Origin: [Bacillus] enclensis
Lineage (GTDB): Bacteria > Bacillota > Bacilli > Bacillales > Bacillaceae_B
Assembly (NCBI RefSeq): GCF_001456935.1
Contig: NZ_KQ758484.1
Location: 124,001 to 188,000, forward strand
Length of the DNA stretch: 64,000 bases
Reading direction: 5' to 3'
Part shown: in pieces, positions 14,142 through 57,545 of the stretch
Layout of the letters: every line of letters begins with the position of its first letter
Position numbering within the stretch: the first letter of the stretch is position 1
Program-made: the position numbers and the translations under genes
The notes under the pieces: generated by a model
Database searches by the model: none
What the model was told of the DNA's origin: nothing
What the model saw: only the letters and a program-made list of their open reading frames with translations

Positions 14142-14270
14142 ATTGTGCCTCTCAGATAGATTATTCTGCCCTTCAGAGGGATTTTTGTACCTTTCAATTA
14201 CATAATTCTACCCTTCATCGGATTATTGTACCTTATAAAAAAATAATTGTGCCCTTCATGTCGAATTTCC
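14142..14270 (+). repeat. Short-unit array 1a (six units, period 20-21 bp)
   Basis: Cores TTGTGCC, TTCTGCC, TTGTACC, TTCTACC, TTGTACC, TTGTGCC start at intervals of 21, 21, 21, 20 and 21 bp, mostly followed by TTCA. It closes with TGTCGAATTTCC (14259-14270). Confidence 0.85.
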
Positions 14271-14436
14271 TCTATTCGCGAAGCAGAGGCGTATTTTCTT
14301 TTATGATTGAGAAGAACGCAGTCCTTTCTATTAAAAACAATGTCTTTTCTCATATTTATTATGCCCTTCATCATTATAACCGCTTCCATCATTATAACCG
14401 CTTCTTTTCCCTAACCATTTCCTGCCTCTTACCGAA

Positions 14437-14564
14437 ATTGTGCCTCTCAAATAACTTATTCTACCCTTCAAATATTATTTGTACCTTTCAAAAACATAAT
14501 TCTACCCCTCATTTCATCATTGCACCTTATAAAAAAATAATTGCGCCCTTCATGTCAAATTTCC
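14437..14564 (+). repeat. Short-unit array 1b (six units, period 20-21 bp)
   Basis: Cores TTGTGCC, TTCTACC, TTGTACC, TTCTACC, TTGCACC, TTGCGCC at intervals of 21, 20, 21, 20 and 21 bp, closing with TGTCAAATTTCC (14553-14564). It is the paralogue of array 1a. Confidence 0.85.
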
Positions 14565-14722
14565 TATACAAACGAAAGCTTTCCCATGATTCAATCATCC
14601 AGAATGGGGTAAACTATCCTCGTTGCTTATTTTATAAAAGCATCCGCTACAAGGGAGAAGAACCCATAACATCCATTCACGACACCAAACTGCATTTTTT
14701 GCAAAATAAACGATCTTCTTCC

Positions 14723-14776
14723 TTGACTTTTTCACCTGCATATATAATAATAAATATCGAATTAGAATTATTATAA
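14723..14776 (+). promoter_or_regulatory. ahpCF promoter with PerR box
   Basis: TTGACT at 14723-14728 and an AT-rich -10 region (TATAATAAT from 14743) precede TTAGAATTATTATAA (14762-14776), which matches the PerR consensus TTATAATNATTATAA at all but one position. PerR repression lifted by peroxide is the known control of ahpCF in Bacillus. Confidence 0.85.
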
Positions 14777-14830
14777 AGTATTAATAATTCTCAATCACAT
14801 CACTACAATCATTTAGGAGGAATTTACACT

Positions 14831-15394
14831 ATGTCTTTAATCGGAACAGAAGTAAAACCATTCAAAGCAGAAGCATTCAAAGATGGTGAATTCATCACTG
14901 TCACTGACGAAAGCCTGAAAGGTCAATGGAGCATTTTCTGCTTCTACCCTGCAGACTTCACATTTGTATGCCCTACAGAACTTGAAGACCTTCAAAATAA
15001 CTACGAGGCTCTTAAAGCCCTTGGCGTAGAAGTATATTCCGTTTCTACAGATACACATTTCACACACAAAGGCTGGCATGACAGCTCTGAAAAAATCGGT
15101 AAAATCAAATACGCGATGATCGGGGATCCATCTCAAACAGTATCCCGCAACTTCGAAGTATTGAACGAAGAAGACGGTCTTGCTGACCGCGGAACATTCA
15201 TCATCGATCCTGATGGTGTCATCCAAACAGTTGAAATCAATGCTGGCGGCATCGGCCGTGATGCAGATATCCTAATCAGCAAAATCAAGGCGGCACAATA
15301 CGTGCGCAACAACCCAGGCGAAGTTTGCCCGGCTAAATGGCAGGAAGGTTCTGAAACACTTAAGCCAAGCCTTGACCTAGTTGGTAAATTATAA
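14831..15394 (+). CDS. ahpC: Alkyl hydroperoxide reductase, peroxiredoxin subunit
   Basis: A 2-Cys peroxiredoxin that reduces H2O2 and organic hydroperoxides. The peroxidatic Cys47 lies in DFTFVCPTE and the resolving Cys166 in GEVCPAKW. Length of 187 is standard. TAGGAGGA precedes the ATG and ahpF follows after 15 bp, so the pair forms the usual operon. Confidence 0.98.
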
Positions 15395-15409
15395 GGAGTG
15401 CAGTAAATC

Positions 15410-16939
15410 ATGCTCGAAGCAGATATTAAAGCACAATTGGAACAGTACCTCCAGATGCTTGAGGGCGACATCGTCCTGAAGGTATCTGCAGGTGATGACG
15501 ACACATCTAAGGACACGGTGGCTCTCGTTGAAGAGATTGCTTCCATGTCCCCAAAGATCACTGTCGAAAAAGCTGATCTTCCAAGAACACCAAGCTTCAG
15601 CGTGAATCGTGCCGGAGAGGAGGATACCGGGGTCCATTTCGCCGGTATCCCGCTCGGACATGAGTTCACTTCACTGGTGCTTGCCCTTCTTCAAGTCAGC
15701 GGCAGACCGCCGAAAGTTGACCAGAGTGTCATCGATCAGATCAAGAGCATCAAAGGCGAACATCACTTCGAAACGTATGTCAGCTTGAGCTGCCATAACT
15801 GTCCTGACGTTGTACAGGCCCTCAACATCATGAGTGTGCTCAATCCGAACATCACTCATACGATGATTGACGGTGCTGCATATAAAGAAGAGGTAGAATA
15901 CAAGAACATCATGGCCGTTCCATCCGTCTACCTGAACGCTGAATTCTTCAGCGGCGGACGCACGACCATTGAAGAAATCCTCGCGAAAATCGTTGAAGGC
16001 CCTGATGCCAGCGAGCTATCTGACAAGGACCCATACGACGTCCTTGTTGTCGGCGGCGGACCTGCCGGATCCAGTGCAGCAATCTATGCAGCACGTAAAG
16101 GAATCCGCACAGGGATCGTAGCTGAACGATTCGGCGGCCAGGTGCTTGATACGATGAGCATCGAGAACTTCATCAGCGTCAAGCAGACGGAAGGACCGAA
16201 GCTTGTCGCAAGCCTTGAAGAACACGTGAAGGACTACGGCATCGATGTCATGAACCTTCAGCGTGCCAAGCGCCTTGAAAAGAAAGACATGATCGAGCTT
16301 GAACTTGAAAACGGCGCAGTCCTTAAGAGTAAAAGCCTGATCATCTCGACAGGTGCCCGCTGGAGAAACATCGGCGTCCCTGGCGAACAGGAATTCAAGA
16401 ACAAAGGTGTGGCCTACTGCCCTCACTGTGACGGTCCATTATTCGAAGGCAAAGACGTAGCGGTCATCGGCGGCGGTAACTCCGGTGTCGAAGCAGCAAT
16501 CGACCTTGCCGGAATCGTCAACCACGTAACGGTTCTCGAGTTCAACTCGGAACTGAAAGCGGACGACGTCCTGCAAAAACGCCTTCACAGCCTTCCGAAT
16601 GTGACAGTCATCACGAACGCACAGACTCAGGAGATCACCGGAGCCGACAAGGTGAACGGAATCACCTACACCGATCGTGATACACATGAGGAACACCACA
16701 TCGAACTGCAAGGTGTCTTCGTCCAGATCGGTCTTGTACCAAACACCGACTGGCTCGACGAAACCATCGAACGTACACGCTTCGGTGAAATCGTCGTCGA
16801 CAAGCACGGCTCTACAAGTCTTCCTGGCGTATTCGCTGCCGGAGACTGCACAGACAGTGCCTACAACCAGATCATCATCTCAATGGGATCAGGAGCGACC
16901 GCAGCACTGGGCGCGTTCGACTACCTTATCCGTAATTGA
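15410..16939 (+). CDS. ahpF: Alkyl hydroperoxide reductase, NAD(P)H-dependent flavoprotein subunit
   Basis: Passes electrons from NAD(P)H through FAD and two disulfides to AhpC. An N-terminal tandem thioredoxin-like domain carries SCHNCPD (about residue 127-131); the FAD motif is [17 protein letters not shown] (about 212-228); the redox motif is YCPHCDGP (about 341); and the NAD motif is [15 protein letters not shown]. Length of 509 is standard. Confidence 0.98.
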
Positions 16940-16944
16940 TAGCA

Positions 16945-16983
16945 AAAGCCGCATCCTGATTGATTGCAGGATGCGGCTTTTTT
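16945..16983 (+). terminator. Terminator of ahpCF
   Basis: AAAGCCGCATCCTG pairs with CAGGATGCGGCTTT, followed by TTTTTT. Confidence 0.93.
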
Positions 16984-17030
16984 GGGTCCGGGCCGTGGTT
17001 TTCCGGCTGGGACGGGTGGTGAAACCGGGT

Positions 17031-17054
17031 CGCGGGGACAGGTTACCCGACCCA
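17031..17054 (+). repeat. Left copy of inverted repeat flanking the gene at 17067-17744
   Basis: CGCGGGGACAGGT followed by TACCC and GACCCA. Its inverted partner is at 17785-17808: 13 bp are perfect, and GACCCA is again shared after a mismatched spacer. Confidence 0.6.
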
Positions 17055-17066
17055 TTTTTCAAGTAC

Positions 17067-17744
17067 CTATTTATTCCGCCTTCTATACAAATCCATCGTC
17101 TTAAACCCTTCAGCTAGGACCGTCTCCATTTCCTTCAGGCGTTTCTCCTGCGTTTCCTTCCGTTTCGCACTGTAAACATAGCGCGCCCAATCCTTTCGGT
17201 ACCCGGGCGTCAACCCTGCATATAGAGAAGCTATCTCTTCATTACCGCCCAAATATGTTTCAATATCTTCAATATGATCGATATAATCATCCACCGACTG
17301 GCTCTTTTTCGCACTCTCAGCCTTCTTCACCTTCTTAGGCGCCGCCTTCATGCCCACCACAGTGAATACATCATCCAGGCTGATCATCCTCGAGAATTTG
17401 AGGCTGCTTCCGTGAACATATCCTTCTTCATCATAATGATTTTCATTATAGATGCTGTCCCGCTCTATGTACGCATCGTATTTCGGGTTGTTCTTTTTAG
17501 GATAAGCAAAGTACAGATAGCCGTTATCCTTCACCAATCCCTTTTCCACCACTTCCTTCAGACGAGACGCAAACTCTTTTAAATCAAACACAAAGATAAA
17601 CACAAGATCATATTGGTCTTTTTCAATCGATGTGTCAAAGTCCACCCCGCTGAAGTCATCGATATCCTCCGGAAGGTTGAGGATGAGCTTATCAGGATAT
17701 TTGCCAAAATTCAATTTTTCAGTAACCGGTTTGGTTGAGTTCAT
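17067..17744 (-). CDS. YdeI/OmpD-associated (OmdA)-domain protein
   Basis: A 225-residue soluble protein. The C-terminal 50 residues, GYRKDWARYVYSAKRKETQ and onward, match the OmdA domain of YdeI-like proteins. The N-terminal part (about 1-150) resembles a DUF3052-like alpha/beta domain but I am not sure. The short Lys-rich linker KKVKKAESAKKS separates the two. It is bracketed by an inverted repeat. No function is established. Confidence 0.65.
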   Translation of the reverse strand: MNSTKPVTEKLNFGKYPDKLILNLPEDIDDFSGVDFDTSIEKDQYDLVFIFVFDLKEFASRLKEVVEKGLVKDNGYLYFAYPKKNNPKYDAYIERDSIYNENHYDEEGYVHGSSLKFSRMISLDDVFTVVGMKAAPKKVKKAESAKKSQSVDDYIDHIEDIETYLGGNEEIASLYAGLTPGYRKDWARYVYSAKRKETQEKRLKEMETVLAEGFKTMDLYRRRNK

Positions 17745-17784
17745 AACAAGGCTCCTTTTTTCAAAAATTCACCACAGGGCCCAT

Positions 17785-17808
17785 TGGGTCAAGGGACCTG
17801 TCCCCGCG
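17785..17808 (-). repeat. Right copy of inverted repeat flanking the gene at 17067-17744
   Basis: TGGGTCAAGGGACCTGTCCC continuing to CGCG, the inverse of 17031-17054. A related AGCGGGGACA word follows at about 17825, and another CTGTCCCCGC lies at about 39850. Confidence 0.6.
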
Positions 17809-17852
17809 GCTCCCTCTGGCCGCCTAAGCGGGGACACGGGCAGCATACTCCT

Positions 17853-18944
17853 CTATTCCCACTTAAACACCCAGCTTGCAATCATGAATCCGCCGACGAG
17901 CCATGCACCCAGGATGAGCGTCTCGGTACCGAGCGCCATGATCGATGTCCCGAGGTTCATCGTCTCACGGAGTGCTGAAGCGAGATGGGCAATCGGCAGG
18001 ATCTTCACGATAGGCTGAATGAAATCCGGCATATTGCTGATCGGGAAGAAGACGCCTCCCAGGAACAGAAGCGGGAATGATACAAAGCCTGCGATCGGCC
18101 CCGCACTTTCCGGATTCTTCGCCATTCCTGCGATGATGAAGCCGAGTGCCATGAACGCAAGCGTCCCCAGCACGATGAAGAAAATCAGTGCAAGCCAGGA
18201 GCCTGCAACATTGATGTCAAAAATAAGATTCGCAATGAGGACGACCAGCAGTGCCTGCGTCCCGTTCAGCAGTAGGCGTGCCGTGATCTGTGCGGCGATG
18301 AACGTCGATGCTTTCAATCTCGTCCCCTGCATCCGGCGCAGGATCCCGCGCTCGCGCCAGGCCGAAATCTGTCCGGCTACACCGTTCATATTGTTACTCA
18401 TGATCATCATCGCCACAATCCCAGGGACAAGGAAATCGATATAGCGGATGTTCAGCGCCTCGATCCCGACCTTCTCGACCATTACGAGCGGCTCGTAGCC
18501 GGCAAGCTCCTTGCTGTATTGATCGATGACGCCGTTCACCACCGTCAGTCCGAGTTCAGCGGTCGTCAGGTTCTTTTCATTGTAATAAACAGGCACGGAA
18601 AAGGCTCCATTACGGGCATCGATGCTGTCCCCATATCCTTTCGGGATTTCGATCAGAAGCTGGATATCACCGTTTTCGACAGCTTGCTTCCCCTCTTTGA
18701 CCGAACCGTAATCAGAGGTTTCTATCCCCTCATTTTTATCAAAAAGAGCTTTCAGGTCCTTGGATGGTCCGCTATCATCCTTATCGACGAGCCCTGCCGT
18801 CAGCGACATCGTGTTCCCTCCGCCGACGAATGAACCGAGCGCCACCATCAGGATGACCGGAAAAAGCAAGGTAAAGAAAAGTACCTGTTTGTTCCGCGCA
18901 AAAATCCGCAATTGTGCCAGGGTCAGCTGCCAATATGCTCTCAT
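17853..18944 (-). CDS. ABC-2 type exporter permease
   Basis: A 363-residue membrane subunit of an ABC exporter. One N-terminal helix (about 18-38) is followed by a large extracytoplasmic domain (about 40-185) and then five helices, the layout of ABC-2/DrrB-like permeases. It overlaps the upstream ATPase by 4 bp (ATGA). It likely exports a drug, lipid or peptide. Confidence 0.9.
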   Translation of the reverse strand: MRAYWQLTLAQLRIFARNKQVLFFTLLFPVILMVALGSFVGGGNTMSLTAGLVDKDDSGPSKDLKALFDKNEGIETSDYGSVKEGKQAVENGDIQLLIEIPKGYGDSIDARNGAFSVPVYYNEKNLTTAELGLTVVNGVIDQYSKELAGYEPLVMVEKVGIEALNIRYIDFLVPGIVAMMIMSNNMNGVAGQISAWRERGILRRMQGTRLKASTFIAAQITARLLLNGTQALLVVLIANLIFDINVAGSWLALIFFIVLGTLAFMALGFIIAGMAKNPESAGPIAGFVSFPLLFLGGVFFPISNMPDFIQPIVKILPIAHLASALRETMNLGTSIMALGTETLILGAWLVGGFMIASWVFKWE

Positions 18945-19867
18945 GATTCACGCAGCCTCCTTCCTGTCATATGGATGAAGACATCCTCTAGAGTCGCCTG
19001 CCGCGTCTGCAGATCCCTGATTTCAAAGCCATGCACCGAAGACGCTTCAATGAGCGATGTCAGGGCAATCTGCAGGTCATCTGTATACAGCTGGACGAAC
19101 GTATCCTTGACCGCCGCTTCTTTCACGCCGTCCATTTTCCCGAACCACTCCTGCTCTGGAGGATCATCCAGATAAAACTCGACCGTACTCGCCGACTGCA
19201 GTGTCTTCACCAGATTCTCCGGCGTATCGAGCGCAATCAGCTCCCCCTGATCCATGATGCCGATCCGGTCGCAGAGCACATGGGCTTCATCCATATAATG
19301 CGTCGACAGGAGCACCGTCTTCCCTCGCTCCTTCAACCGCAGCACGATATCCCATAGCGTCCGCCTCGCCTGTGGATCAAGTCCCGTCGTCGGCTCATCA
19401 AGGAACACAATCGCCGGATCATGGATCAGTGCCAGCGCAATCGCCAGCCGCTGTTTCTGGCCGCCCGAAAGCCCCTTGATCCGGTCCCTCCGCTTCTCGG
19501 TCAGCAGCATGTCTTCAATCAGACCGTCAATATCCACATGACTCGGATAAAAGCTTGCATACAAATGAAGGATCTCCTCCACCTTCAGCAGCTCGAACAA
19601 TGACGTCGATTGGAGCTGGACCCCGATCACTTCCTTCACCTTATTCACTTCTTTCCGGACATCATGACCGGACAGGCTTGCCGTCCCTTCATCCGGCTTC
19701 CGGAGGCCGACCAGCATCTCGATCGTCGTCGTCTTCCCGGCCCCGTTCGGACCAAGCAGGCCGAAGATCTCTCCCTTTTCGACTTGGAACACGACCCCGT
19801 TCACAGCCGTGAATGTCCCGTACCGCTTGACTAGATTCTTTACATCAACCATTACTTCTTCAGGCAT
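18941..19867 (-). CDS. ABC transporter ATP-binding protein (DrrA-like)
   Basis: A 308-residue ATPase with Walker A GPNGAGKTT (about residue 38), Q-loop VQLQ, signature LSGGQKQRLAIA, Walker B VFLDEPTTGLD and the H-loop STHYMDEA. The C-terminal 80 residues are the usual accessory domain of DrrA-like exporters. It is the first gene of a two-gene operon with the permease. Confidence 0.94.
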   Translation of the reverse strand: MPEEVMVDVKNLVKRYGTFTAVNGVVFQVEKGEIFGLLGPNGAGKTTTIEMLVGLRKPDEGTASLSGHDVRKEVNKVKEVIGVQLQSTSLFELLKVEEILHLYASFYPSHVDIDGLIEDMLLTEKRRDRIKGLSGGQKQRLAIALALIHDPAIVFLDEPTTGLDPQARRTLWDIVLRLKERGKTVLLSTHYMDEAHVLCDRIGIMDQGELIALDTPENLVKTLQSASTVEFYLDDPPEQEWFGKMDGVKEAAVKDTFVQLYTDDLQIALTSLIEASSVHGFEIRDLQTRQATLEDVFIHMTGRRLRES

Positions 19868-19928
19868 AATGAACCTCCTTTTCTAAAAAAACATACCGCC
19901 CCGTATTGATTGAGCGGCCTAAGATTGT

Positions 19929-20357: not shown

Positions 20358-20576
20358 ATGTACCTCCTGAAGTGTGATAGTTTCATTATATACCAGTTGG
20401 AGAGTTGTTGGAGAAATGTGACAAAAAAAGAACGCGCTGGTTGGGTCGAAAGCATATGGTTAAGAGGCCGTTATAGGTCGTTTTTTTATGGAATATGGGC
20501 TGGTCATGAGGATTTCGTGAAAGGTTGCTGCATTTAGAGAAGGATTTGGACTTCACAGAAGCATCCTCTTTTAATG

Positions 20577-20699
20577 ATTGTGCCCGCTGATGAATAATTG
20601 CGCCAGTTTCCATTTTATTGCGCCACTTTGGCGAGAATTGCGCCGGATTCCTGTTTATTGCGCCACTTCCCGGATAATTGCGCCACTTGTCGAATTTCC
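20577..20699 (+). repeat. Short-unit array 2 (six units, exact 20-bp period)
   Basis: Six units start with ATTGTGCC then ATTGCGCC five times, every 20 bp exactly, and the last runs into TGTCGAATTTCC (20688-20699). The 12 bp after each core vary freely. It lies on the far side of the terminator at 20705-20752. Confidence 0.9.
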
Positions 20700-20704
20700 A
20701 CTAT

Positions 20705-20752
20705 AAAAAAAGGCCCGTCCTTCATCACATCAAAGTGATAAAGGACGGACCT
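20705..20752 (-). terminator. Terminator of the SDR gene, GGCCCGTCC family
   Basis: GGCCCGTCCTTCATCAC and an imperfect complement with a 6-base loop, followed on the minus strand by a T tract. The outer arm matches the dispersed hairpins at 6541 and 8163. Confidence 0.85.
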
Positions 20753-20778
20753 CTCAAACCGGGCACCTGTGCCACAAT

Positions 20779-22801: not shown

Positions 22802-22904
22802 ATTGTGCCGGAATCTGATTTATTGTGCCTCTTTTTAAATAATCGTGCCGGTATCCTGATATATGTGCCAAAATCACGATAATCTTGCCGATTGTCGAAT
22901 TTCC
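22802..22904 (+). repeat. Short-unit array 3 (five or six units, exact 20-bp period)
   Basis: ATTGTGCC, ATTGTGCC, ATCGTGCC, ATATGTGCC and ATCTTGCC cores repeat every 20 bp; a degenerate unit (ATAGTCCC) sits one period upstream. The array ends in TGTCGAATTTCC (22893-22904). It separates two co-directional genes. Confidence 0.88.
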
Positions 22905-22989
22905 TTTATCAGCCGTTTGGCAGCGGGTGAAAGGATTCCAAGAGTTTCCATCGTATTATTACTATATTCCCTTTTAAGGAGCGAAAACG

Positions 22990-23793: not shown

Positions 23794-23925
23794 ATTGTGC
23801 CCCATAATCGGATAATTGCACCCTTTATTCAATTATTAGGCCTCTCCCCATTCTCATTGCGTCCTTCAATCAGTTAATTGTGCCCTTCATCTGAATCATT
23901 CTACCCTTCATGTCGAAGTTTCTCC
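23794..23925 (+). repeat. Short-unit array 4 (six units, period 20-21 bp)
   Basis: Units begin ATTGTGCC, ATTGCACC, ATTAGGCC, ATTGCGTC, ATTGTGCC and ATTCTACC at intervals of 21, 20, 21, 21 and 21 bp, then TGTCGAAGTTTC (23911). It lies between convergent genes, beyond the 23710 terminator. Confidence 0.85.
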
Positions 23926-23966
23926 ATCTAACATGACACACCAAACCGCTACCTATCCAATCCAAG

Positions 23967-25620: not shown

Positions 25621-25895
25621 TTCCGAAAAAGGAGGACACTAAAAAAATCCTCCCAGTTGATCTGGAAGGATTAGCCGTACCTGTAACGTGCACAAACAAA
25701 GCTATCCCTGTGATAGCTCCTGCAGCATCTTTAAAAATGGGCAGACTAATCCTATTTTGGTCCCGAGTTGAAATCAATCTATTTCAATTCATCGCGAAAA
25801 TAAGATTAGTTCTTCATCGTCCACCCATCACTCCTGTCATTTATTAGTAATTATACTATACCACGGAATCCATGAATGTGGCAAAAGGAAAAAGT
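25621..25895 (-). promoter_or_regulatory. Attenuator leader of vmlR
   Basis: On the minus strand, TTGCCA and TATAGT (18-bp spacing, near 25885-25860) are followed by a leader with AGGAGTG and minimal reading frames (ATGGGTGGACGATGA, or ATGAAGAACTAA). Near its end AATCCTTCCAG pairs with CTGGGAGGATT before TTTTTTT, a terminator just ahead of the vmlR ribosome-binding site. ATAGGATTAGTCTGCC and GGCTAATCC segments offer alternative pairings. Translation-coupled antitermination on antibiotic stress is the known mode for ABC-F genes; here it is inferred. Confidence 0.75.
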
Positions 25896-28179: not shown

Positions 28180-28348
28180 AATTGATAATAAAAAAGACAT
28201 TTCGATGATAAAGACCTGTACTCGATTTCAACCCTGTCTTTTTGAGAATATATCTTACCGAGTTTGCCATTTCGATAATAAACTTTTCATTTTCGATAAA
28301 AGAACGGCTTTTTCCGATAATAAATCTTTCAATATCGATAATAAAATT
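28180..28348 (+). repeat. Short-unit array 5 (TCGATAATAAA type, period ~21 bp)
   Basis: TTTCGATAATAAA-like cores occur at about 28181, 28200, 28271, 28292, 28313 and 28334; the last four are spaced 21 bp, and two degenerate units (CTCGATTTCAA, TTGAGAATATA) fill the gap. The core differs from other arrays but the period is the same. It lies beyond the doxX terminator. Confidence 0.7.
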
Positions 28349-28502
28349 AGCGCACGATCGAAAATCAACAAAAATTCCCGTCCAAAAGAAATTGGTCAAG
28401 CTATACGCGGGTCAACCTCCCAAGAAATCGGACCATTTCCTAAAATCATTCGGGATTTCCCTTCTTTTTTGCTCATTTTCACCAAAAATAATCCTATCAA
28501 TC

Positions 28503-29212: not shown

Positions 29213-29432
29213 ATTTTATATCATTCCCTCTCACGTGTCAATAGGCGTTTTACTATTTTTATAAAAAGCTGTTTTCTAAATGATTGTTGCTATTCGTATA
29301 TAGGCTTATAACCTGAATGCAGCTTGAAAATCTTCAACAAGAGACGGACGTACAACCCGAAAATGCCGAAGTTCCGGGTTTTTTCTTGTTTGTATAGCAA
29401 CAAAATATACGAAAAGAGCCTTATAAAATAAA

Positions 29433-31738: not shown

Positions 31739-31902
31739 GGAACTGGCTCAAATACGGGTAAATGAGCCAGGCTCAATCTGCGGTGTCTGTGCCTGGCACA
31801 AATCGCCCAGATTGTGCCAGGCACAATTAACCCTGATTGTTCCTGGCACAAAACACACCATTTGTTCCTGGCACAAAACCGCCAATCCGTGCCTGACACC
31901 GC
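31739..31902 (+). repeat. Short-unit array 6 (seven palindromic units, exact 25-bp period)
   Basis: Palindromic cores of 14 bp repeat every 25 bp: a partial GAACTGGCTCAA, TGAGCCAGGCTCAA, TGTGCCTGGCACAA, TGTGCCAGGCACAA, two TGTTCCTGGCACAA, and a decayed CGTGCCTGACACC. The 11-bp spacers are unrelated to each other. Confidence 0.9.
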
Positions 31903-36526: not shown

Positions 36527-36731
36527 GAAAAACCGGCAGCCGGCCTTTAAAACCGGCCCTCACACGTCGGTCATAAGGCGATGGAGAAGGCACTTGCAGA
36601 TAATTGTGCCTTTCGTCGATGGAATTCTACCTCTCATTTGATTAATTGCACCCCTTATTTTTTTATTGTGCCTTTCATAAAAAAAATTGCGCCCTTCCCG
36701 CCAATAATTGCGCCCTTCGTGTCGAATAATC
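36527..36731 (+). repeat. Array 7 with conserved 5' flank (six units, period 20-21 bp)
   Basis: A flank ATGAAAAACCGGC...GGCGATGGAGAAGGCA leads into units TTGTGCC, TTCTACC, TTGCACC, TTGTGCC, TTGCGCC, TTGCGCC at 21, 21, 20, 21, 21 bp, closing with TGTCGAATAATC (36720-36731). The flank, unit order and spacings match array 8. Confidence 0.88.
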
Positions 36732-36738
36732 TTTACCC

Positions 36739-42207: not shown

Positions 42208-42412
42208 ATGAAAACCGGCAAACGGTCCTTGCAGCCGGCCATCACAGACTGTAGAAAGGCTATGGAGAAGGCAGTCGGGGCTAATTGCACCCTTCATCAA
42301 GGGAATAGTGCCTTTCAATTGATTAATTACACCCCATATTTTTTTATTATGCCCTTCGTAAAAATAATTGCGCCCTTCCCGCTGTAAATTATGCCCTTCA
42401 TGTCGAATAATC
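42208..42412 (+). repeat. Array 8 with conserved 5' flank (six units, period 20-21 bp)
   Basis: A flank ATGAAAACCGGCA...GGCTATGGAGAAGGCA precedes units TTGCACC, TAGTGCC, TTACACC, TTATGCC, TTGCGCC, TTATGCC at 21, 21, 20, 21, 21 bp and TGTCGAATAATC (42401-42412). It is a diverged copy of array 7, beyond the 42130 terminator. The 42413-42575 stretch after it holds only a small AAGCCGCC/GGCTT inverted repeat. Confidence 0.88.
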
Positions 42413-42575
42413 TTTATCATAAGAAGAAACCAGTCTCTGCAGCCAGGCATTTGATCAGGAATGATAAGAAAACCAAAATAAAGCCGCCATTTGGCTTACT
42501 TATTCCAATGCGCGTATGCGTCATCTTCAAGGACCAAACCATTGTTTACACGCAGACAAAACGATGCGTATGCTT

Positions 42576-49479: not shown

Positions 49480-49494
49480 TGGTTCACGTCCGTT

Positions 49495-50918: not shown

Positions 50919-50931
50919 TACTCGTGCATCG

Positions 50932-50969
50932 AGGGACGGGCCTTTAGCAAGCTAAAGGCCCGTCCCTCC
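50932..50969. terminator. Terminator hairpin, GGCCCGTCCCTC family
   Basis: GAGGGACGGGCCTTTAGC and its full complement with a 2-base loop. It reuses the dispersed arm and separates two convergent genes. Confidence 0.9.
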
Positions 50970-51742: not shown

Positions 51743-51822
51743 AATAACCTTCCTTCTCATTCATTTTCTTTAGTTTTTGAGAAGTTAGAGGTTTCATGCT
51801 TACTAAAAGTATCCAAATGTTA

Positions 51823-51941
51823 GGGCTCGTCCAGTTTATGCTCGAAAAGCTTCGTTTTTTGCTCGGCAATTTGGATTTGTGCTCGAAAGCATATGATTTG
51901 TGCTCGAATTCCGGAATTTATGCTCGAGCTGTCGATTTTTC
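51823..51941 (+). repeat. Short-unit array 9 (TGTGCTCGAA type, period 20-21 bp)
   Basis: Five units TTTATGCTCGAA, TTTTTGCTCGG, TTTGTGCTCGAA, TTTGTGCTCGAA and TTTATGCTCGAG repeat every 20-21 bp; GGCTCGTC sits 15 bp ahead. It ends with TGTCGATTTTTC (51930-51941), the same closing slot as other arrays. The core is a related variant (TTGTGC). Confidence 0.82.
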
Positions 51942-51961
51942 TTTAAAGCCCTGCCCTCATA

Positions 51962-52519
51962 TCAAAAAGCCTGATACTCTTCACTGGCAAGTTCCTTCAA
52001 TTTAGCCTTGTTTTTCTCGATGAATTTCCTCACCGCTTCTTCGTCATTCACATCGGGAAAATCCTTAAATTCCTCTTTTAACTCCTTTTCCACCTGCTGT
52101 CTCGAGACATCGAGTGTGAAATCATCGATTTCAAACGAGTATCCTTTCGAATTAGGAACTAAAAGCGCAAGATAAATGGCATTATAATAAAAGTTCTGCT
52201 TATCGACATTTTTCCCGTTGAACCAGTACTTATTGAACTGCTCTTCAGAGATGCCGGAGCCTTCTTCAAGACCGTATGTAACCTTGATTCTTTCATCGGA
52301 CAAGTCGATTCCCTTCACCGTTTCACCGCCTGGCAGGCTTTGAACGATGCTGTATACCTTATTATTGTCCCCGACATAGGTCCCGGTCATTTCCTTTAAC
52401 TTATCCAAATTCACATTTTCAATTTTCGTTATCTTAACTTTATCCGCCGGCTCGCTGCAGGCTGCAAGAACCACTGCCGCGGCAAGTATCATGATGAAGA
52501 ATGCTGTAATCCGTTTCAT
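51962..52519 (-). CDS. DUF4825-like lipoprotein
   Basis: A 185-residue lipoprotein with lipobox VLAAC (Cys near residue 21). The TGTYVGDNNKVYSIVQSLPG segment and following KGIDLSDERIKVTYGLEE resemble the DUF4825 domain; a C-terminal helix-rich tail follows. Function unknown. AGGGATC precedes the ATG. Confidence 0.8.
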   Translation of the reverse strand: MKRITAFFIMILAAAVVLAACSEPADKVKITKIENVNLDKLKEMTGTYVGDNNKVYSIVQSLPGGETVKGIDLSDERIKVTYGLEEGSGISEEQFNKYWFNGKNVDKQNFYYNAIYLALLVPNSKGYSFEIDDFTLDVSRQQVEKELKEEFKDFPDVNDEEAVRKFIEKNKAKLKELASEEYQAF

Positions 52520-52584
52520 AAGATCCCTCCATTTCCCCGTAGTATACTAAAAATGGCGATTGATGGAAAGTTTCTTAGGTAATG

Positions 52585-52614
52585 AAAAAAGCAGCAAAAA
52601 ATCTCATGCTGCTT
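52585..52614 (-). terminator. Terminator after the 58-residue gene
   Basis: AAAGCAGCA and TGCTGCTTT pair around 11 bases, overlapping the end of the small gene, followed by TTTTCATTA on the minus strand. Confidence 0.75.
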
Positions 52615-52791
52615 TTACTGACCTCCAGAACTCCCGCGGTGATCACCCCCAGAATAATTACTATCTTCCCCGGGCTTCGCACCAGGATTGATGCCTGGCA
52701 GGTGATCATCATTTTTTCTCCGCTTCCTCCGGACATCGATCAAATAAGCAAAAATTAAAATCCCTGCAATCATGATCCAGAACCACCACAT
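52615..52791 (-). CDS. 58-residue single-helix membrane protein
   Basis: Not a long frame, but well supported: AAAGGAGG upstream, ATG at 52791, then MWWFWIMIAGILIFAYLIDV, a basic stop-transfer (RRKRRKN) and a Gly/Asn-rich soluble tail ending GSSGGQ, with its own terminator. A Trp-rich membrane anchor with a cytoplasmic tail. Spacing from AAGGAGG to ATG is long (12 bp). Function unknown. Confidence 0.65.
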   Translation of the reverse strand: MWWFWIMIAGILIFAYLIDVRRKRRKNDDHLPGINPGAKPGEDSNYSGGDHRGSSGGQ

Positions 52792-52839
52792 TATAATTGG
52801 ACGCCTCCTTTTTACTATCCTATGTACTTCCGGCGCTCC

Positions 52840-53277
52840 TTAAAACTCCACATAAAACGGGTGGGTCCCTTCGTCAAGGCACTGCCTGATCCGTTCTTTG
52901 AAATTTTGGAAAGTCACCATTTCCAAAGCTTCTTCAACCGGAAAAAAGCCAACTTCAAGGCTTTCTTCAGAGGTAGTCGGTGTCCCCCCTACAGGCCTCG
53001 CTAAAAATAAGGTATTGCAGATGGACTGAGCCACATTTTGAAAAATTCCGCAGAACTTCGTGATTTCCACTTCAATCCCCGATTCCTCGATTGTTTCCCT
53101 GATGGCCGCGTCCTTAAGTGATTCTCCTTCTTCCACCTGACCGCCGGGCATTTCCCAGCCTCTTTCCGGTCCTTTGATCAGCAGCAGCTCACCCTGTTCA
53201 TTTAAAACAATTGTCGCCGCCGAAACAATATGTTTTGGCGGGGTAAAAATGTGCTGTGCCTGTTGATTTTCGCTCAA
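52840..53277 (-). CDS. Nudix hydrolase
   Basis: A 145-residue Nudix pyrophosphohydrolase with the box GGQVEEGESLKDAAIRETIE followed by ESGI (Gx5Ex7REUxEExGU). The start is TTG at 53277, 7 bp after GGAGG. The substrate cannot be told. Confidence 0.92.
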   Translation of the reverse strand: MSENQQAQHIFTPPKHIVSAATIVLNEQGELLLIKGPERGWEMPGGQVEEGESLKDAAIRETIEESGIEVEITKFCGIFQNVAQSICNTLFLARPVGGTPTTSEESLEVGFFPVEEALEMVTFQNFKERIRQCLDEGTHPFYVEF

Positions 53278-53361
53278 AGTGCTTCCTCCATTCCACCTGC
53301 ATCAATATCCTTATTTTACCACAAACTCACCCATTGTTGGAAATTTCCGAATAATGACAAC

Positions 53362-53389
53362 AAAAAAGTCCCGTGTATATCCACGGGAC
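53362..53389 (-). terminator. Terminator of the fumarase gene
   Basis: GTCCCGTG and CACGGGAC pair around 6 bases, then TTTTTTG on the minus strand. Confidence 0.88.
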
Positions 53390-53400
53390 GCTGTTCTTCT

Positions 53401-54957
53401 TTATTTAAATACCGGCTCCTTGAACTGAGCCAGTTTTTCCAATGATGATTTATCGACTTCTTCGTGCAATGAGTTTCCGTGTGAATCCATGGTCACGACC
53501 GCAGTGAACCCTTCTACATTCAGGTGCCACATGGCTTCAGGAATACCGAATTGCATCAAATCGACACCGTCAACACCCTTGATGCAGTCAGCATAGTACT
53601 GAGCTGCTCCGCCGATTGCGTTGAGGTAGACACCACCGTGCTCCTTAAGAGCAGCAAGCGTCTTAGGCCCCATGCCGCCTTTTCCAATGACCGCGCGGAT
53701 GCCGAATCGCTTCATGATATCGCCCTGGTAAGGTTCCTCGCGAATCGATGTCGTCGGACCGGCCGCTTTCACGTGCCAGCTGCCTTCATCGTCCTTCAGC
53801 ATGACCGGTCCGCAGTGGTAGATGATCTGTCCGTCAAGGTCAACCGGCGCATCGTTGTCACTCAAGTGTTTGTGGATCGCGTCGCGGCCCGTGTACATGC
53901 GGCCGTTAATCTTCACTACGTCACCCACTTTAAGTTCGCGGATCTGCTCTTCCGTGATCGGTGCCTGAAGCGTCACAACATTCGGCGCCTCACCGGCATC
54001 AGCAGCGGCCGTCTCAAGTTCAGCTTCGGACCCTTGAGTAAGATCGATCTTCTCGCCTTCCTGATAGAACCACTCAGCGATTCCACCCTCGGAATTAAGC
54101 TTCACACCCAGACGGCGGAACGCCCAGCAGTTGTAGGCAACCGATACGAAGAAGCTTGCCGGAATACGGTTCATCACGCCGGCCTTACAGCCAAGAAGCG
54201 TCGTTTCCCCTCCGAAGCCCATCGTACCGATGCCAAGTTCGTTTGCATTTTCCATCACGTATTCTTCAAGCTTGCGAAGATCTTCATTAGGATTTACGTC
54301 ATCCACTGAACGGAATAGCTGTGCTTTTGCAAGATCATATCCCGAAGAACGGTCTCCCCCGATACCGACGCCGATGAACCCTGCGCTGCATCCCTGACCC
54401 TGTGCCTGGTACACTGAGTGCATCACACATTTTCGGATTCCGTCAAGGTCGCGACCCGCACGGCCCAGTCCTTCAAGCTCACAAGGAAGGCTGTACTGGA
54501 TGTTTTTATTTTCACAGCCGCCGCCTTTCAGGATCAGGCGAGCGTCCACATAGTCCTCTTCCCACTGTTCGAATTTGATGACAGGTGTACCAAGACCCAG
54601 GTTGTCCCCTGAGTTTGCACCAGTGAGGGAATCGACTGAGTTCGGACGGAGTTTCCCGTCCTTTGTCGCCTGTACCATCGCCGCATAGATCGCGTCTTTG
54701 ATTTCAAGCTGATTCACTCCGACCGGAGTCTTTATTTTAAATGTAGGAAGACCTGTATCCTGACAAATCGGAGATACATTGTCATCCGCCATCTTTACGT
54801 TATTCGAAATCGTATCAAGGCTCATCGCCGCCCGCGTCCCCGCATTCTCACGCTCTTTCGCAGAACGGATCGCACGGCGCACATCCTTCGGCAGGTTCGT
54901 GGACGTTTCCACGATCAAGTCATACATACTTTGCTGCAATGTCTCTTTATTCATCAT
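53401..54957 (-). CDS. Class I fumarate hydratase (iron-sulfur)
   Basis: A 518-residue TCA-cycle enzyme that interconverts fumarate and malate with an oxygen-sensitive [4Fe-4S] cluster. The N-terminal alpha domain contains ICQDTGLPTF and GGGCENKN and LLGCKAGVMNR, the last two with candidate cluster cysteines; the C-terminal beta domain has AAGPTTSIREEPY and TVVTMDSHGNS. Single-gene fusion of alpha and beta domains is the usual form. AAAGGGG precedes the ATG. Confidence 0.93.
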   Translation of the reverse strand: MMNKETLQQSMYDLIVETSTNLPKDVRRAIRSAKERENAGTRAAMSLDTISNNVKMADDNVSPICQDTGLPTFKIKTPVGVNQLEIKDAIYAAMVQATKDGKLRPNSVDSLTGANSGDNLGLGTPVIKFEQWEEDYVDARLILKGGGCENKNIQYSLPCELEGLGRAGRDLDGIRKCVMHSVYQAQGQGCSAGFIGVGIGGDRSSGYDLAKAQLFRSVDDVNPNEDLRKLEEYVMENANELGIGTMGFGGETTLLGCKAGVMNRIPASFFVSVAYNCWAFRRLGVKLNSEGGIAEWFYQEGEKIDLTQGSEAELETAAADAGEAPNVVTLQAPITEEQIRELKVGDVVKINGRMYTGRDAIHKHLSDNDAPVDLDGQIIYHCGPVMLKDDEGSWHVKAAGPTTSIREEPYQGDIMKRFGIRAVIGKGGMGPKTLAALKEHGGVYLNAIGGAAQYYADCIKGVDGVDLMQFGIPEAMWHLNVEGFTAVVTMDSHGNSLHEEVDKSSLEKLAQFKEPVFK

Positions 54958-55052
54958 TCTTCCCCTTTCCCCTCAACCAATTGAATTGTATAAACGATTC
55001 ATGATTTTTCACCAATCATTATACTCCTATAAGAATCGGATTGAAAGGGATT

Positions 55053-55499
55053 TCACAAAGGAAATTCCTTTTGGAAATAACAGGACACCTCATCTTCATG
55101 AGTCTCCGAATACCCGTTCTTCTTATAAAATTGAATGGCATCCGCCCACTGTTTATTCGTCTCCAGGATCAGTTTCTGTGCACCCATGGATTTTGCCTTG
55201 TTTTCCAAATGGTCGAGCATCCGCCGGCCGAGACCGTGCTTTCGGTAAGGCTTCAACACAGACATCCTCACAACCTGAAACGTATCTTGAGATTCCCTCC
55301 TGATCGCCCCGGTACAAATCATTCTATCCCCGTCCATCCCCACATAAAATAAATGATCACCCTGCATGTACTCACTCCAGATGTCCTGGATATCAGGGTT
55401 CAGGGTGTGGTCGATGAAACCGAACCGCTCAAGGAATCCGGCCAGGATGACTTCCTTCGCTGCGGGGCACTGCTCTTTTTGTATCGCCTGAATTTGCAT
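55053..55499 (-). CDS. GNAT-family N-acetyltransferase
   Basis: A 148-residue acetyltransferase with the acetyl-CoA loop PYRKHGLGRRMLDHLENKA at about residues 85-103 and WADAIQFYKKNGYSETHE near the end. AAGGAGAG lies before the ATG. Substrate unknown. Confidence 0.9.
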   Translation of the reverse strand: MQIQAIQKEQCPAAKEVILAGFLERFGFIDHTLNPDIQDIWSEYMQGDHLFYVGMDGDRMICTGAIRRESQDTFQVVRMSVLKPYRKHGLGRRMLDHLENKAKSMGAQKLILETNKQWADAIQFYKKNGYSETHEDEVSCYFQKEFPL

Positions 55500-55625
55500 A
55501 TGTATCTCTCCTTTATATGTGAACCACTGTTATGTATTTGACTAAAATCAGGAAAATCCTCCCCGGGGTTAGAGGATATGTGACAGGGTTCATCATTTTC
55601 CGGGAAATAACGATATCATTCTGCC

Positions 55626-55890
55626 TGTGCCAGGAAGAATAAACGGGAATGGTGGCTGGAATTGGTGGCTGTGATTGTGCCAGGCACAAATTAGGTGGAT
55701 TGTTCCTGGCACAATCTGCTCGATTTGTTCCTGGCACAAAACACCAAAAACGTGCCAGGCACCGGTCCTGATCCTGAGCCTGGCTCAATGACCCCGGTTT
55801 GAGCCTGGCTCAAAACCACCCGATTGAGCCTGGCTCAACAAACCCAATTTGAACCTGGCTCAAAACACCAAACCCGAGCCTAGCTCAATC
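55626..55890 (+). repeat. Short-unit array 10 (about eleven units, 25-bp period, two core types)
   Basis: Units about every 25 bp from 55626: a partial TGTGCCAGG and a decayed unit, then TGTGCCAGGCACAA, two TGTTCCTGGCACAA, CGTGCCAGGCACC, and a switch to TGAGCCTGGCTCAA three times, TGAACCTGGCTCAA and CGAGCCTAGCTCAA. The register is kept across the switch. Confidence 0.9.
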
Positions 55891-55921
55891 TACAAACAAC
55901 AGCCCACTCCCAACCCAAAAT

Positions 55922-55950
55922 AAAAAAAAGAGCCCCATCACCAGGACTCT
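55922..55950 (-). terminator. Terminator of the SE1561-type gene
   Basis: AGAGTCC and GGGGCTCTT pair around 8 bases, then TTTTTTT on the minus strand. Array 10 lies beyond it. Confidence 0.75.
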
Positions 55951-56132
55951 TATTCGCTCTTCTTAAATTGTTCGCATTTCGTCTCTATATCATCGATCAT
56001 GGAAATCAGGCGGTCGATATCTTCCACATCGGCCTGTTCAGGGTCGATGGAATCTAATACATCTACAAATAGATTCAAACGCTGTTTCAGGTAATCTACC
56101 TGTGAGTTTTTATCATCTACGGCTTTGCCCAA
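55950..56132 (-). CDS. SE1561-family small protein
   Basis: A 60-residue acidic helical protein: DYLKQRLNLFVDVLDSIDPE and DIDRLISMIDDIETKCEQF. The family is named from Staphylococcus epidermidis and has no known function. I prefer the TTG at 56132, 8 bp after AAAGGAG; that site overlaps the alternative ATG at 56150. Confidence 0.8.
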   Translation of the reverse strand: MGKAVDDKNSQVDYLKQRLNLFVDVLDSIDPEQADVEDIDRLISMIDDIETKCEQFKKSE

Positions 56133-56245
56133 GAGAATCTCTCCTTTCATACCTTTATCATGGTAACCAATAACTTTCGGATTGACAAGGGGTCAGCAGT
56201 TTTCAATAATGAGTTAGTGACTTATTGTAAAGGAGTTTTTACTAT

Positions 56246-57373
56246 ATGAAATCAACTACTCTCTTCAAGAAGATGTCGATCGACCATGACCCTTGGGAGG
56301 CATATCTCGATGTGGAGGAGCACGGAGGCATTACGCTTTCCAACATCGAATTTACCACGACTACGCTCTGCAATATGCGCTGTGAGCACTGTGCAGTCGG
56401 CTACACCCTGACGCCGAAGGATCCGGAGACGCTGCCTATGGATACCGTGTTTCAGCGCCTTGATGAAATCACTGCACTTCGTTCCCTTAGTATTACCGGC
56501 GGGGAGCCGATGCTTTCCAAGAAATCGGTGGAACATGTGGTGCTGCCGCTTTTGAAGTACGCGCATACAAGAGGGGTACATACACAGATCAATTCGAACC
56601 TGACCCTCGACCTTGACCGTTACTTGTTGATTGCCCCTTATCTCGATGTTTTACATATTTCCCACAACTGGGGCACGACAGATGAGTTCATCGATGTCGG
56701 TTTTGCCAATATGGAGAGGAAGCCGACCCGTGAGCAGCGCCAGAAGCTGTTTGACCGGATGATTGAGAACAGCCGCGCGCTTTCTGAAGCTGGTGTGCTT
56801 GTTTCTGCTGAAACGATGCTCAATAAAAACACGCTGCCTTATCTCGAAAAGATCCACCGCCAGGTTGTCGATGAGATGAAATGCGGACGGCACGAGATTC
56901 ACCCTATGTACCCATCAGATTTCGCTTCGAGCCTCGAAACCCTGTCACTTGATGAGACGCGTGATGCAATTAAAGGCATTCTGGAGTTCCGAGATGAAAA
57001 TGTGTGGATGTTGTTCGGCACGCTGCCATTCTATCCATGCAGCACCTCTGAAGAAGACCGCAGCTTATTGAAACAGCTGTACTCAGCCAAAAATGTAAGT
57101 GTACGGAATGACCCTGATGGCCGCTCGCGACTGAACGTCAATATCTTTACTGGTGACGTGATCGTAACCGACTTCGGCGATACGCCGCCGCTGGGGAACA
57201 TTACGAATGACTCACTGCCTGAAATATTCGATAAATGGCAGGAAGGGGAGCTTGCGAAGGAATTGAACTGTCACTGCCCTGCAGCTAAATGTCTCGGACC
57301 GAATGTACTGGTGAAGTCCATGTATTATGAGAATGTTGATTTTTCTAAAAGAAAATCATTGATTGAGCGTTGA
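56246..57373 (+). CDS. yfkAB: YfkAB-type radical SAM protein
   Basis: A 375-residue radical SAM enzyme. The cluster motif is LCNMRCEHCAVGY (CxxxCxxC, about residues 42-49); GGEPML is the SAM-binding segment. The C-terminal CHCPAAKC matches the CxCxxxxC motif that defines the family, probably binding a second cluster. In B. subtilis it is often split as yfkA and yfkB. The substrate is unknown. AAAGGAG precedes the ATG. Confidence 0.93.
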   Translation: MKSTTLFKKMSIDHDPWEAYLDVEEHGGITLSNIEFTTTTLCNMRCEHCAVGYTLTPKDPETLPMDTVFQRLDEITALRSLSITGGEPMLSKKSVEHVVLPLLKYAHTRGVHTQINSNLTLDLDRYLLIAPYLDVLHISHNWGTTDEFIDVGFANMERKPTREQRQKLFDRMIENSRALSEAGVLVSAETMLNKNTLPYLEKIHRQVVDEMKCGRHEIHPMYPSDFASSLETLSLDETRDAIKGILEFRDENVWMLFGTLPFYPCSTSEEDRSLLKQLYSAKNVSVRNDPDGRSRLNVNIFTGDVIVTDFGDTPPLGNITNDSLPEIFDKWQEGELAKELNCHCPAAKCLGPNVLVKSMYYENVDFSKRKSLIER

Positions 57374-57380
57374 TTGACCG

Positions 57381-57412
57381 TCCCGGCTTCAGAATGAGGC
57401 TGGGATTTTTTT
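57381..57412 (+). terminator. Terminator of yfkAB
   Basis: TCCCGGCTTC and its imperfect complement GAGGCTGGGA around 6 bases, then TTTTTTT. Confidence 0.82.
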
Positions 57413-57431
57413 GTTGCTGCGAAAAACGTTA

Positions 57432-57545
57432 ATTGCGCCAGTTTTACGATTTTCGCGCCTCAATTTTAATAATTGCGCCCCTTTCCAGATAATTGCGCCA
57501 GATTCCAATTAATTGCGCCTCTTTCCCGATAATTGCGCAACTAAT
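57432..57545 (+). repeat. Short-unit array 11 (six units, exact 20-bp period)
   Basis: AATTGCGCC-type cores (one TTCGCGCC) repeat every 20 bp; the last (AATTGCGCAA) leads into CTAATAATCATT, which may be a decayed closing motif. It lies just beyond the yfkAB terminator. Confidence 0.88.

What the first reader, a model, noticed from the sequence alone, without database searches (positions are those of the whole stretch)
14142..57545. A family of at least twelve intergenic short-unit arrays with strict 20-21 or 25 bp period
Seen directly: arrays at 14142, 14437, 20577, 22802, 23794, 28180, 31739, 36603, 42284, 51823, 55626 and 57432. Most are five or six units long with an identical phase (20 or 21 bp, two DNA turns) and a short core, usually TTG-Y-GCC or a close variant, while the rest of each unit varies freely. 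The spacing is conserved but the spacer sequence is not, so selection seems to act on position. That fits repeated protein binding to one face of DNA or RNA. I know no named element with this build; the function is unknown.
Basis: partly seen in the sequence, partly recalled or inferred. Interest (0 to 1): 0.88.

Follow-up and report, generated by a model that had tools for sequence, protein, structure and literature searches.

The report
Phased binding-site arrays between bacterial genes
A Bacillus-like bacterium and several of its relatives carry many short arrays of evenly spaced DNA sites in the quiet gaps between genes, with a core sequence that tends to differ from species to species; they look like docking platforms for an unknown DNA-binding protein.

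Summary
The arrays are real and commoner than reported. In 456 kb of this chromosome, 44 of 249 intergenic regions (>=100 bp) hold a 19-22 bp (or 24-25 bp) phased array scoring above every shuffled control, about one per 10 kb. They are not one family. At least ten cores occur, fairly uniform within an array. Of 22 TTGNNCC arrays read, 16 end in a cap starting TGTCGAA. Arrays favour convergent gene pairs (14/44 versus 19/205) and lie beyond predicted terminators (31 of 32). Compared with Rossellomorea aquimaris, cores diverge about half as fast as spacers, clearly in the other families and less securely in TTGNNCC. Genus-wide, the two middle core bases are largely species-specific.

Best reading: DNA-level platforms for an unidentified, site-specific, probably oligomerising protein. 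Units resemble the repeats at IS21/Tn7-type transposon ends (one IS21 group has TTGAGCCACT at 21-22 bp), but in this genome no transposon tip, partner end or full-length transposase accompanies them. Neutral-relic and target-immunity readings are not excluded.

The parts
14142..14275 (+). TTGNNCC array (type A), 6 units 20-21 bp, cap TGTCGAATTTCC
   Evidence: orthologue in R. aquimaris
14437..14568 (+). TTGNNCC array (type A), 6 units, cap variant TGTCAAATTTCC; local relative of 14142 (about 72% over 309 alignment columns)
20577..20700 (+). TTGCGCC array (type B), 6 units of exactly 20 bp, cap TTGTCGAATTTCC; one unit more in R. aquimaris
22802..22911 (+). TTGTGCC array (type B), 5 units 20 bp, cap TTGTCGAATTTCC
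   Evidence: (read); score equals the shuffle maximum
23794..23926 (+). TTGNNCC array (type A), 6 units, cap ATGTCGAAGTTTC; a type A array also lies next to the orthologous right-hand gene in G023
28180..28362 (-). array with core TTTATTATCGAAA (minus strand), four regular units at 21-22 bp plus a degenerate copy; not found in the R. aquimaris orthologous gap
31739..31899 (.). 25-bp array of palindromes TTGTGCCTGGCACAA / TTGAGCCTGGCTCAA
   Evidence: strong palindromic fold (z -6.77)
36603..36735 (+). TTGNNCC array (type A), 6 units, cap GTGTCGAATAATCTTTA; R. aquimaris has about three units fewer with the cap kept
42284..42415 (+). degenerate TTGNNCC array (type A), 6 units 20-22 bp, cap ATGTCGAATAATCTTTA; nearly identical in R. 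aquimaris
   Evidence: not significant by self-similarity
51823..51948 (+). array with core TTTGTGCTCGAA, 5 units 20-21 bp, cap CTGTCGATTTTTCTTTAAA
55626..55890 (.). 25-bp array of palindromes (TTGTKCC..GGCACAA, then TTGAGCC..GGCTCAA)
   Evidence: the orthologous gap in G023 holds a TTTATCTGCC array instead
57432..57548 (+). TTGCGCC array (type B), 6 units of exactly 20 bp, no clear cap

Best explanation
The arrays are DNA-level docking platforms. Typically five or six sites, two helical turns apart, present the same face to a site-specific protein that binds cooperatively. The platform sits in the quiet DNA between a gene's terminator and the next transcript. Each array family has its own 7-12 bp core, and most TTGNNCC arrays carry a second conserved site (the cap) at one end. 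Selection holds cores and spacing. When the binding specificity shifts, the cores change together across a genome. What the bound array does is inferred: most likely an inter-operon boundary or anchor, or a domesticated transposase-type site. Shown: phase, placement, positional conservation, core slower than spacer overall, largely species-specific cores. Inferred: the protein, cooperativity and function.
For: 44 of 249 intergenic regions score above all 249 shuffled controls, with offsets concentrated on 19-22 and 24-25. Own-R. aquimaris divergence: non-palindromic families together core 36/684 versus spacer 178/1690, p 2.5e-5, flanking intergenic 472/4900; without TTGNNCC 13/447 versus 108/1023, p 1.5e-7 (from one search's rows); TTGNNCC on a larger set (13 of 20 arrays with a spanning alignment) 26/449 versus 139/1204, p 4e-4. 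Arrays kept in place: own and R. aquimaris both 29, own only 6, aquimaris only 3, neither 155; own and G023 both 7, own only 11, G023 only 3, neither 63. Convergent 14/44 versus 19/205, p 2.8e-4; divergent 5/44 versus 56/205, p 0.03. Where a terminator was predicted it lies before the array in 31 of 32 gene ends. Cores: TTGYGCC pairs 42, 39, 50, 31, 23 in G000, G020, G016, G012, G013 against 0 TTGGGCC pairs in each; TTGGGCC pairs 25 and 21 in G004 and G024 against 0 and 1 TTGYGCC pairs. The cap AAATTGTGAACA occurs with TTGGGCC in G004 (1 of 2 arrays read, the other has AACTTGTGAACA) and with TTGTGCC in G012 (1 of 2 read) and G013 (2 of 2). At one orthologous array the core reads CAGCATA in most own units and GCGCATA in G023 while spacers still align. 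Six RNA folds of four TTGNNCC arrays gave z between -1.59 and +1.41.
Against: No binding protein was identified. 20 genes next to the window arrays show no common function and no initiator or transposase domain. For TTGNNCC alone the core/spacer difference is absent (23/237 versus 70/667) and in the four arrays aligned almost without gaps (5/153 versus 16/334, p 0.63); the 'spacer' class includes some flank. Cores were called by consensus (at most 1 mismatch for short cores) in either species, a mild bias; 13 of 38 arrays had no single spanning alignment. Some congeners have no array in the sample read (G025, 0 in 80 kb). Cores are not exclusive everywhere: G006 has 12 TTGGGCC and 11 TTGYGCC pairs, G016 50 TTGYGCC and 7 TTGATCC, G009 9 and 26. 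Spacing along the chromosome is not clearly regular (p 0.075) and family clustering is weak (p 0.06; 0.19 after removing local duplicates).
Confidence: 0.5

Rival explanations
1. The arrays are solitary relics of IS21/Tn7/Mu-type transposon ends: the unit is a transposase-binding repeat, left behind or spread without the transposase, with no present function.
For: TTGAGCC pairs at 21 bp: 6 of the 13 places listed were read, and they lie beside IstA matches, full (G042 twice, G007, G037) or fragmentary (G010, G016). In G042 the end is a tip plus four units 21-22 bp apart with core TTGAGCCACT-like, very close to TTGNGCCACTT. A Tn7-like end in G004 has 20-bp units. IS21 repeats and 22-bp TnsB sites are published (passages of PMC10122671 and PMC9371665). 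A PWM made from array units has its best hit on an upstream or terminal TTGAGCCACT unit in 4 of 12 IS21 loci, two of them copies of one element.
Against: No IstA above the cut-off and no PF09299 match in G000, G012, G013, G016, G020, G023. No partner end or tip: 7 of 20 own upstream stretches have an IS21-tip match of 9 or more of 12, but six of these lie in the units themselves. Only one of the PWM best hits (L067) exceeded its shuffle maximum. Relics should not keep cores at half the spacer rate.
Confidence: 0.17
2. Ordinary operators of several local regulators.
For: Caps look like known regulator boxes (TGTCGAA like a Spo0A box, TTAGAATNATTCTAA like a Fur-type 7-1-7 box; both recalled from memory, not tested). 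TGTCGA lies within 45 bp of an array edge in 9 of 44 versus 5.1% of background windows.
Against: Arrays are rare in divergent promoter regions and lie behind terminators. Neighbouring genes in the window have nothing evident in common.
Confidence: 0.12
3. Neutral tandem satellites that expand and contract by slippage; the common core only reflects shared ancestry.
For: Whole-unit gains and losses between orthologues; local duplicates; for TTGNNCC the core/spacer difference is not seen in every subset.
Against: Core/spacer rate difference in the other families and in the pooled TTGNNCC set, near-exclusive use of one core in several species, positional conservation.
Confidence: 0.1
4. RNA-level elements (3' UTR binding sites or small RNAs).
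For: Placement downstream of genes; the one palindromic array folded is strongly structured (z -6.77).
Against: Beyond predicted terminators, either orientation to neighbours, no significant structure in four TTGNNCC arrays, only unrelated Rfam hits in the window.
Confidence: 0.05

Closest known systems
IS21-family transposon ends (IstA-binding direct repeats)
   Same: Direct repeats at about 21-23 bp, short core with variable spacer, several copies; one IS21 group of the order has core TTGAGCCACT.
   Different: The own arrays have no TG...CA tip, no inverted partner, no istA/istB, usually five or six units, stable positions and many cores per genome.
Tn7 / CAST / Mu ends (22-bp TnsB or MuA sites)
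   Same: Multiple two-turn sites next to a terminal motif.
   Different: No PF09299 transposase in the array-rich genomes tested, no second end; hundreds of arrays per genome extrapolated from the sampled density.
Plasmid iterons
   Same: Several direct repeats of about 20 bp, same face of the helix (recalled).
   Different: Scattered over the chromosome, no Rep gene among 20 neighbours, many different cores.
TAACTGA intergenic direct repeats of Beggiatoaceae and cyanobacteria (PMC4679880; outline, abstract and passages read)
   Same: Many intergenic direct-repeat sets in one genome with no known binder.
   Different: Heptamer repeats, in the main genome mostly just upstream of start codons; ours are 20-25 bp units with free spacers, behind terminators.
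REP/BIME and STAR-type bacterial intergenic repeats
   Same: Short intergenic repeats in many copies (recalled).
   Different: As recalled, not phased in five- or six-unit arrays; only our 25-bp type is palindromic.

Membership tests
IS21 transposon end | two or more direct repeats of about 23 bp with a shared core | tested here: met
   20-22 bp units, core close to that of one IS21 group (repeats separated by 23 bp in published IS21)
IS21 transposon end | terminal tip ending in CA next to the repeats | tested here: not met
   own TGTCGAA caps run on into TCTTTA-like sequence; the IS21-tip search upstream of 20 own arrays found 7 matches of 9 or more, six of them inside units. Some G004, G012, G013 caps do end ...GTGAACA
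IS21 transposon end | paired inverted ends around istA/istB | tested here: not met
   only two weak, short IstA matches in G000; three PF01695 matches in G000, 26-35 bits, not identified further
Tn7/Mu-type element | DDE transposase of the TnsB/MuA class | tested here: not met
   PF09299 none in G000, G012, G013, G016, G020, G023
Plasmid-type iteron origin | adjacent replication initiator gene | tested here: not met
   20 window neighbours scanned with Pfam, none an initiator
CRISPR array | near-identical repeats of 24 bp or more with unique spacers of similar length | tested here: not met
   units 20-25 bp with short cores
Rfam RNA family | match at gathering score over an array | tested here: not met
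   in the window only the lysine riboswitch and ncr1575 hit, neither on an array
Phage or plasmid element | similar arrays in phage or plasmid records | tested here: not met
   no match for one B array in phages and plasmids and one F array in plasmids; one viral-contig hit of the capped pattern, where I see only two core copies and no array; no viral-contig hit for TTCGCGCATA triplets
Spo0A box (cap) | binding by Spo0A | not testable with these tools
   resemblance of TGTCGAA only, recalled

The most novel reading that the evidence does not exclude
The arrays are a genome-wide vaccination against transposons: domesticated sets of transposase end-sites, about one per 10 kb, that make the chromosome look already occupied to IS21/Tn7/Mu-like elements and so trigger their target immunity. 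Core families track the invading elements, which would explain many cores, fast species-specific switching, lack of partner ends and placement in quiet DNA.
Probability: 0.07. Interest if true: 0.95.

Novelty: categorically new. Interest (0 to 1): 0.8.

Why it matters
If the reading holds, this chromosome devotes roughly one intergenic gap in six (44 of 249 sampled) to phased protein-binding platforms, and related species carry the same build with another core. This would be a bacterial counterpart of fast-evolving site/binder pairs. It gives a concrete route to the binder: pull-down on one array, and comparison of sister species with CG, TG, GG or AT in the core. It would bear on how inter-operon boundaries or transposon resistance are built.

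Tried and rejected
Single-family view: rejected; at least ten cores in 456 kb.

RNA element: six folds of four TTGNNCC arrays not significant, placement beyond terminators.

Orientation to replication: the sampled contig has one replichore sign (GC skew and gene strand) and arrays lie in both orientations on it, so no strict rule (read off).

Mobile element in the present: no plasmid or phage match for the arrays tried; dispersed same-family copies share mainly the array and little flank, apart from local duplicates and a few pairs with 50-80 bp of shared flank; positions stable against R. aquimaris.

Transposon-immunity correlation: of the genomes with 3 or more TTGYGCC pairs (10 of 36 in the genus set), none has IstA above the cut-off, which looked suggestive. 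But G004, rich in TTGGGCC arrays, has both IS21 and a PF09299 element, and the unbiased 20-kb samples are too small. I therefore do not claim a correlation.

Sampling: several congeners were read at places already known to hold arrays, so they are not used for density.

G036 (another family) has 209 TTGGGCC pairs, nearly all listed ones at 21 bp. Three stretches read are open in several frames on both strands because 21 is a multiple of three, so coding is not excluded.

Inconclusive: spacing regularity, family clustering. One search failed (BLAST parameters) and was redone. In one search, two arrays (181432, 438500) look misregistered by a unit and one (217698) had no core called; all were kept in the counts. 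In one search, four of the 44 (C3:102089, 124291, 132086, 401000) look like plain AT-rich sequence and were kept too. Of the six own-only arrays, one (443795) has a shorter array in R. aquimaris and one (401000) is AT-rich; of the three aquimaris-only, one (373630) is just under threshold in own.
Full report
OBSERVATION. Arrays can be read at all twelve places. Fixed-period autocorrelation (84-bp windows, periods 15-30) put 9 of the 12 above the best of 20 Markov shuffles of the window, and three unlisted places as well. A jitter-tolerant banded self-alignment put 9 of the 11 intergenic regions that hold the 12 arrays above the best of 249 shuffled intergenic regions. 22802 tied with that maximum. 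The 42284 region scored 9 or less and rests on homology to 36603 and on its orthologue. In the whole genome, TTGYGCC pairs with a 12-16 base gap occur 42 times and the reversed control 0 times.

NOT ONE FAMILY. I read 392 kb more of the same contig, giving 456 kb with the window. The autocorrelation scan found 40 regions at 0.53 or more, against a maximum of 0.512 in three second-order Markov controls. A few look coding or are long perfect repeats; those outside the window were printed, except one long perfect repeat, and read. Cores include TTGNNCC (types A and B), TATGATCC, TTATTATCGAAA, TTATTATCAAAA, TTATTTTCAA, AATCTTCGAATTT, GTCAGCATAAA, TTGTCGGTAAA, GGCCTGTATTT, 25-bp palindromes built from TTGTGCC, TTGAGCC or TTGTACC half-sites, TTTGTGCTCGAA, TTTATGCGCGAA and TATGTGCG. 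Of 249 intergenic regions of 100 bp or more, 44 exceed every shuffled control. Best offsets were 20 (19), 21 (10), 19 (6), 22 (2), 18 (1), 25 (5), 24 (1). Four of the 44 look merely AT-rich. Mean distance between arrays is 10.1 kb.

CAP. Of 22 TTGNNCC arrays of this genome read end on the same side with TGTCGAA followed mostly by an A/T run and TC or CC. The other six have variants (for example TGTCAAA) or none. Family F arrays end in or near AGAATCATTCTAA. TGTCGA lies within 45 bp of an array edge in 9 of 44 arrays against 5.1% of background windows. Two loci carry a B array without cap followed by an A array (L014, L022).

PLACE. Array regions are convergent in 14 of 44 versus 19 of 205 regions without arrays (p 2.8e-4) and divergent in 5 of 44 versus 56 of 205 (p 0.03). 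Of 51 gene 3' ends facing one of 42 listed arrays, 32 have a predicted intrinsic terminator (57 of 127 ends without arrays do), and in 31 of the 32 it lies between the gene and the array. Genes and terminators are my own predictions. Array orientation relative to neighbours is mixed. Neighbours in the window are ordinary: decarboxylase, peroxiredoxin, WYL regulator, ABC protein, multicopper oxidase, YfkB, YfkD and others (20 genes).

SELECTION. Own and R. aquimaris (G020) were aligned at 25 of 38 arrays; 13 had no single spanning alignment. Without the palindromes, cores differ at 36 of 684 positions, spacers at 178 of 1690 (p 2.5e-5), other intergenic DNA at 472 of 4900, coding DNA at 350 of 5310. 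Palindromic arrays: core 66/565, spacer 190/745. By family the picture is uneven. Without TTGNNCC and palindromes it is 13/447 versus 108/1023 (p 1.5e-7). TTGNNCC alone shows no difference (23/237 versus 70/667), where two arrays look misregistered. A larger TTGNNCC set (20 arrays; 13 with a spanning alignment, 5 partial, 2 without orthologue fetched) gives 26/449 versus 139/1204 (p 4e-4), but its four nearly ungapped arrays alone give 5/153 versus 16/334 (p 0.63). So constraint on the core is well supported for the other families and only moderately for TTGNNCC. Unit numbers change by whole units while the cap stays (36603, 20577).

POSITION AND CORE SWITCHING. Of 249 own intergenic regions, 193 have an orthologue in R. 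aquimaris: arrays in both 29, own only 6, aquimaris only 3, neither 155. In G023 (median protein identity 82%), 84 have an orthologue: both 7, own only 11, G023 only 3, neither 63. Among the seven shared, three keep the type (212175, 281658, 311638), two have another type (179673 palindromes against TTTATCTGCC; 330398 TTATTTTCAA against palindromes) and two a changed core (217150, 225710). At 217150 the spacers still align while CAGCATA in own and aquimaris reads GCGCATA in G023 (alignment of repeats is ambiguous, and one own unit already reads GCGCATA).

SPECIES-DEPENDENT CORE. TTGYGCC pairs: G000 42, G020 39, G016 50, G012 31, G013 23, G006 11, G015 10, G009 9 (some matches in other genomes are coding). 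TTGGGCC pairs: 0 in G000, G020, G016, G012, G013; G004 25, G024 21, G006 12. TTGATCC pairs: G009 26 (mostly one region), G016 7, others four or fewer. Reversed controls are 0-4 per genome. So several species use one core nearly alone and three use two. G004 (TTGGGCC), G012 and G013 (TTGTGCC) share the cap AAATTGTGAACA in four of six arrays read. In G016, two TTGATCC-like arrays carry the own-type cap TGTCGAATTTCCTTTA or TGTCGAATTTTCTTTA. Some congeners showed none in the sample (G025, 0 in 80 kb). In other families of the order, G041 and G053 had no flagged region in 60 kb each and the three flagged in G044 look coding (not tested), but G036 has 209 TTGGGCC pairs. In genome contigs the capped pattern hit R. 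aquimaris (2 loci) plus 3 unrelated records, which I did not read; the own genome may be left out there.

TRANSPOSON RESEMBLANCE. TTGAGCC pairs at 21 bp were listed at 13 places in ten genomes. The six I read lie beside IstA matches: full in G042 (two copies), G007 and G037, fragments in G010 and G016. In G042 the end is tip TGATTATTGCGG, then four units 21, 22 and 22 bp apart around GAGCC. A Tn7-like end in G004 has 20-bp units and tip ...GTCAGTAAACA (its link to the PF09299 gene about 6 kb away is inferred). A PWM from array units has its best hit on a TTGAGCCACT unit in L366, L365 (copies of one element), L067 and L061 of 12 IS21 loci; only in L067 does it exceed the shuffle maximum. Published IS21 repeats are separated by 23 bp and two are needed for integration (PMC10122671, passages); TnsB sites are 22 bp (PMC9371665, passages). 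The array-rich genomes G000, G012, G013, G016, G020 and G023 lack IstA above the cut-off and PF09299; G004 has both and is array-rich.

INTERPRETATION. Phase, core constraint, silence of the location and species-dependent cores point to a trans-acting DNA-binding factor acting on DNA. Which protein, and to what end, is open. I rank a functional binding platform first (0.5), neutral transposon-end relics next (0.17), and keep target-immunity arrays as the boldest reading (0.07). Literature searches (listings, plus PMC4679880 outline, abstract and passages) showed no described element of this build in the held open-access library. Subscription papers are not covered.

Noticed in passing
window 29256-29428: An insertion of about 170 bp absent from the R. 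aquimaris orthologue, with what look like imperfect terminal inverted repeats and a short target duplication; related copies (72-78%) at eight or more places in R. aquimaris. Looks like a MITE.
   Followed up: partly
window 13756-13931 (minus): Lysine riboswitch upstream of a PLP decarboxylase gene.
   Followed up: no
window 25641-25850 (minus): Match to the Bacillus sRNA family ncr1575.
   Followed up: no
G036:C2, L356-L358: Another family of the order has very long TTGGGCC arrays with a 21-bp period (209 pairs in the genome); whether coding is unclear.
   Followed up: partly
L014, L022: Composite loci: a TTGCGCC array without cap followed by a type A array.
   Followed up: no
own contig C3 near 307998, 340700-340900, 358200, 368500, 413760: A further dispersed intergenic repeat of about 75-145 bp hit by the flank of the array at C3:340900.
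   Followed up: no
G009:C14:305419-306680 and 343832-345050: TTGATCC arrays that seem to be duplicated in blocks of a few hundred bp.
   Followed up: no
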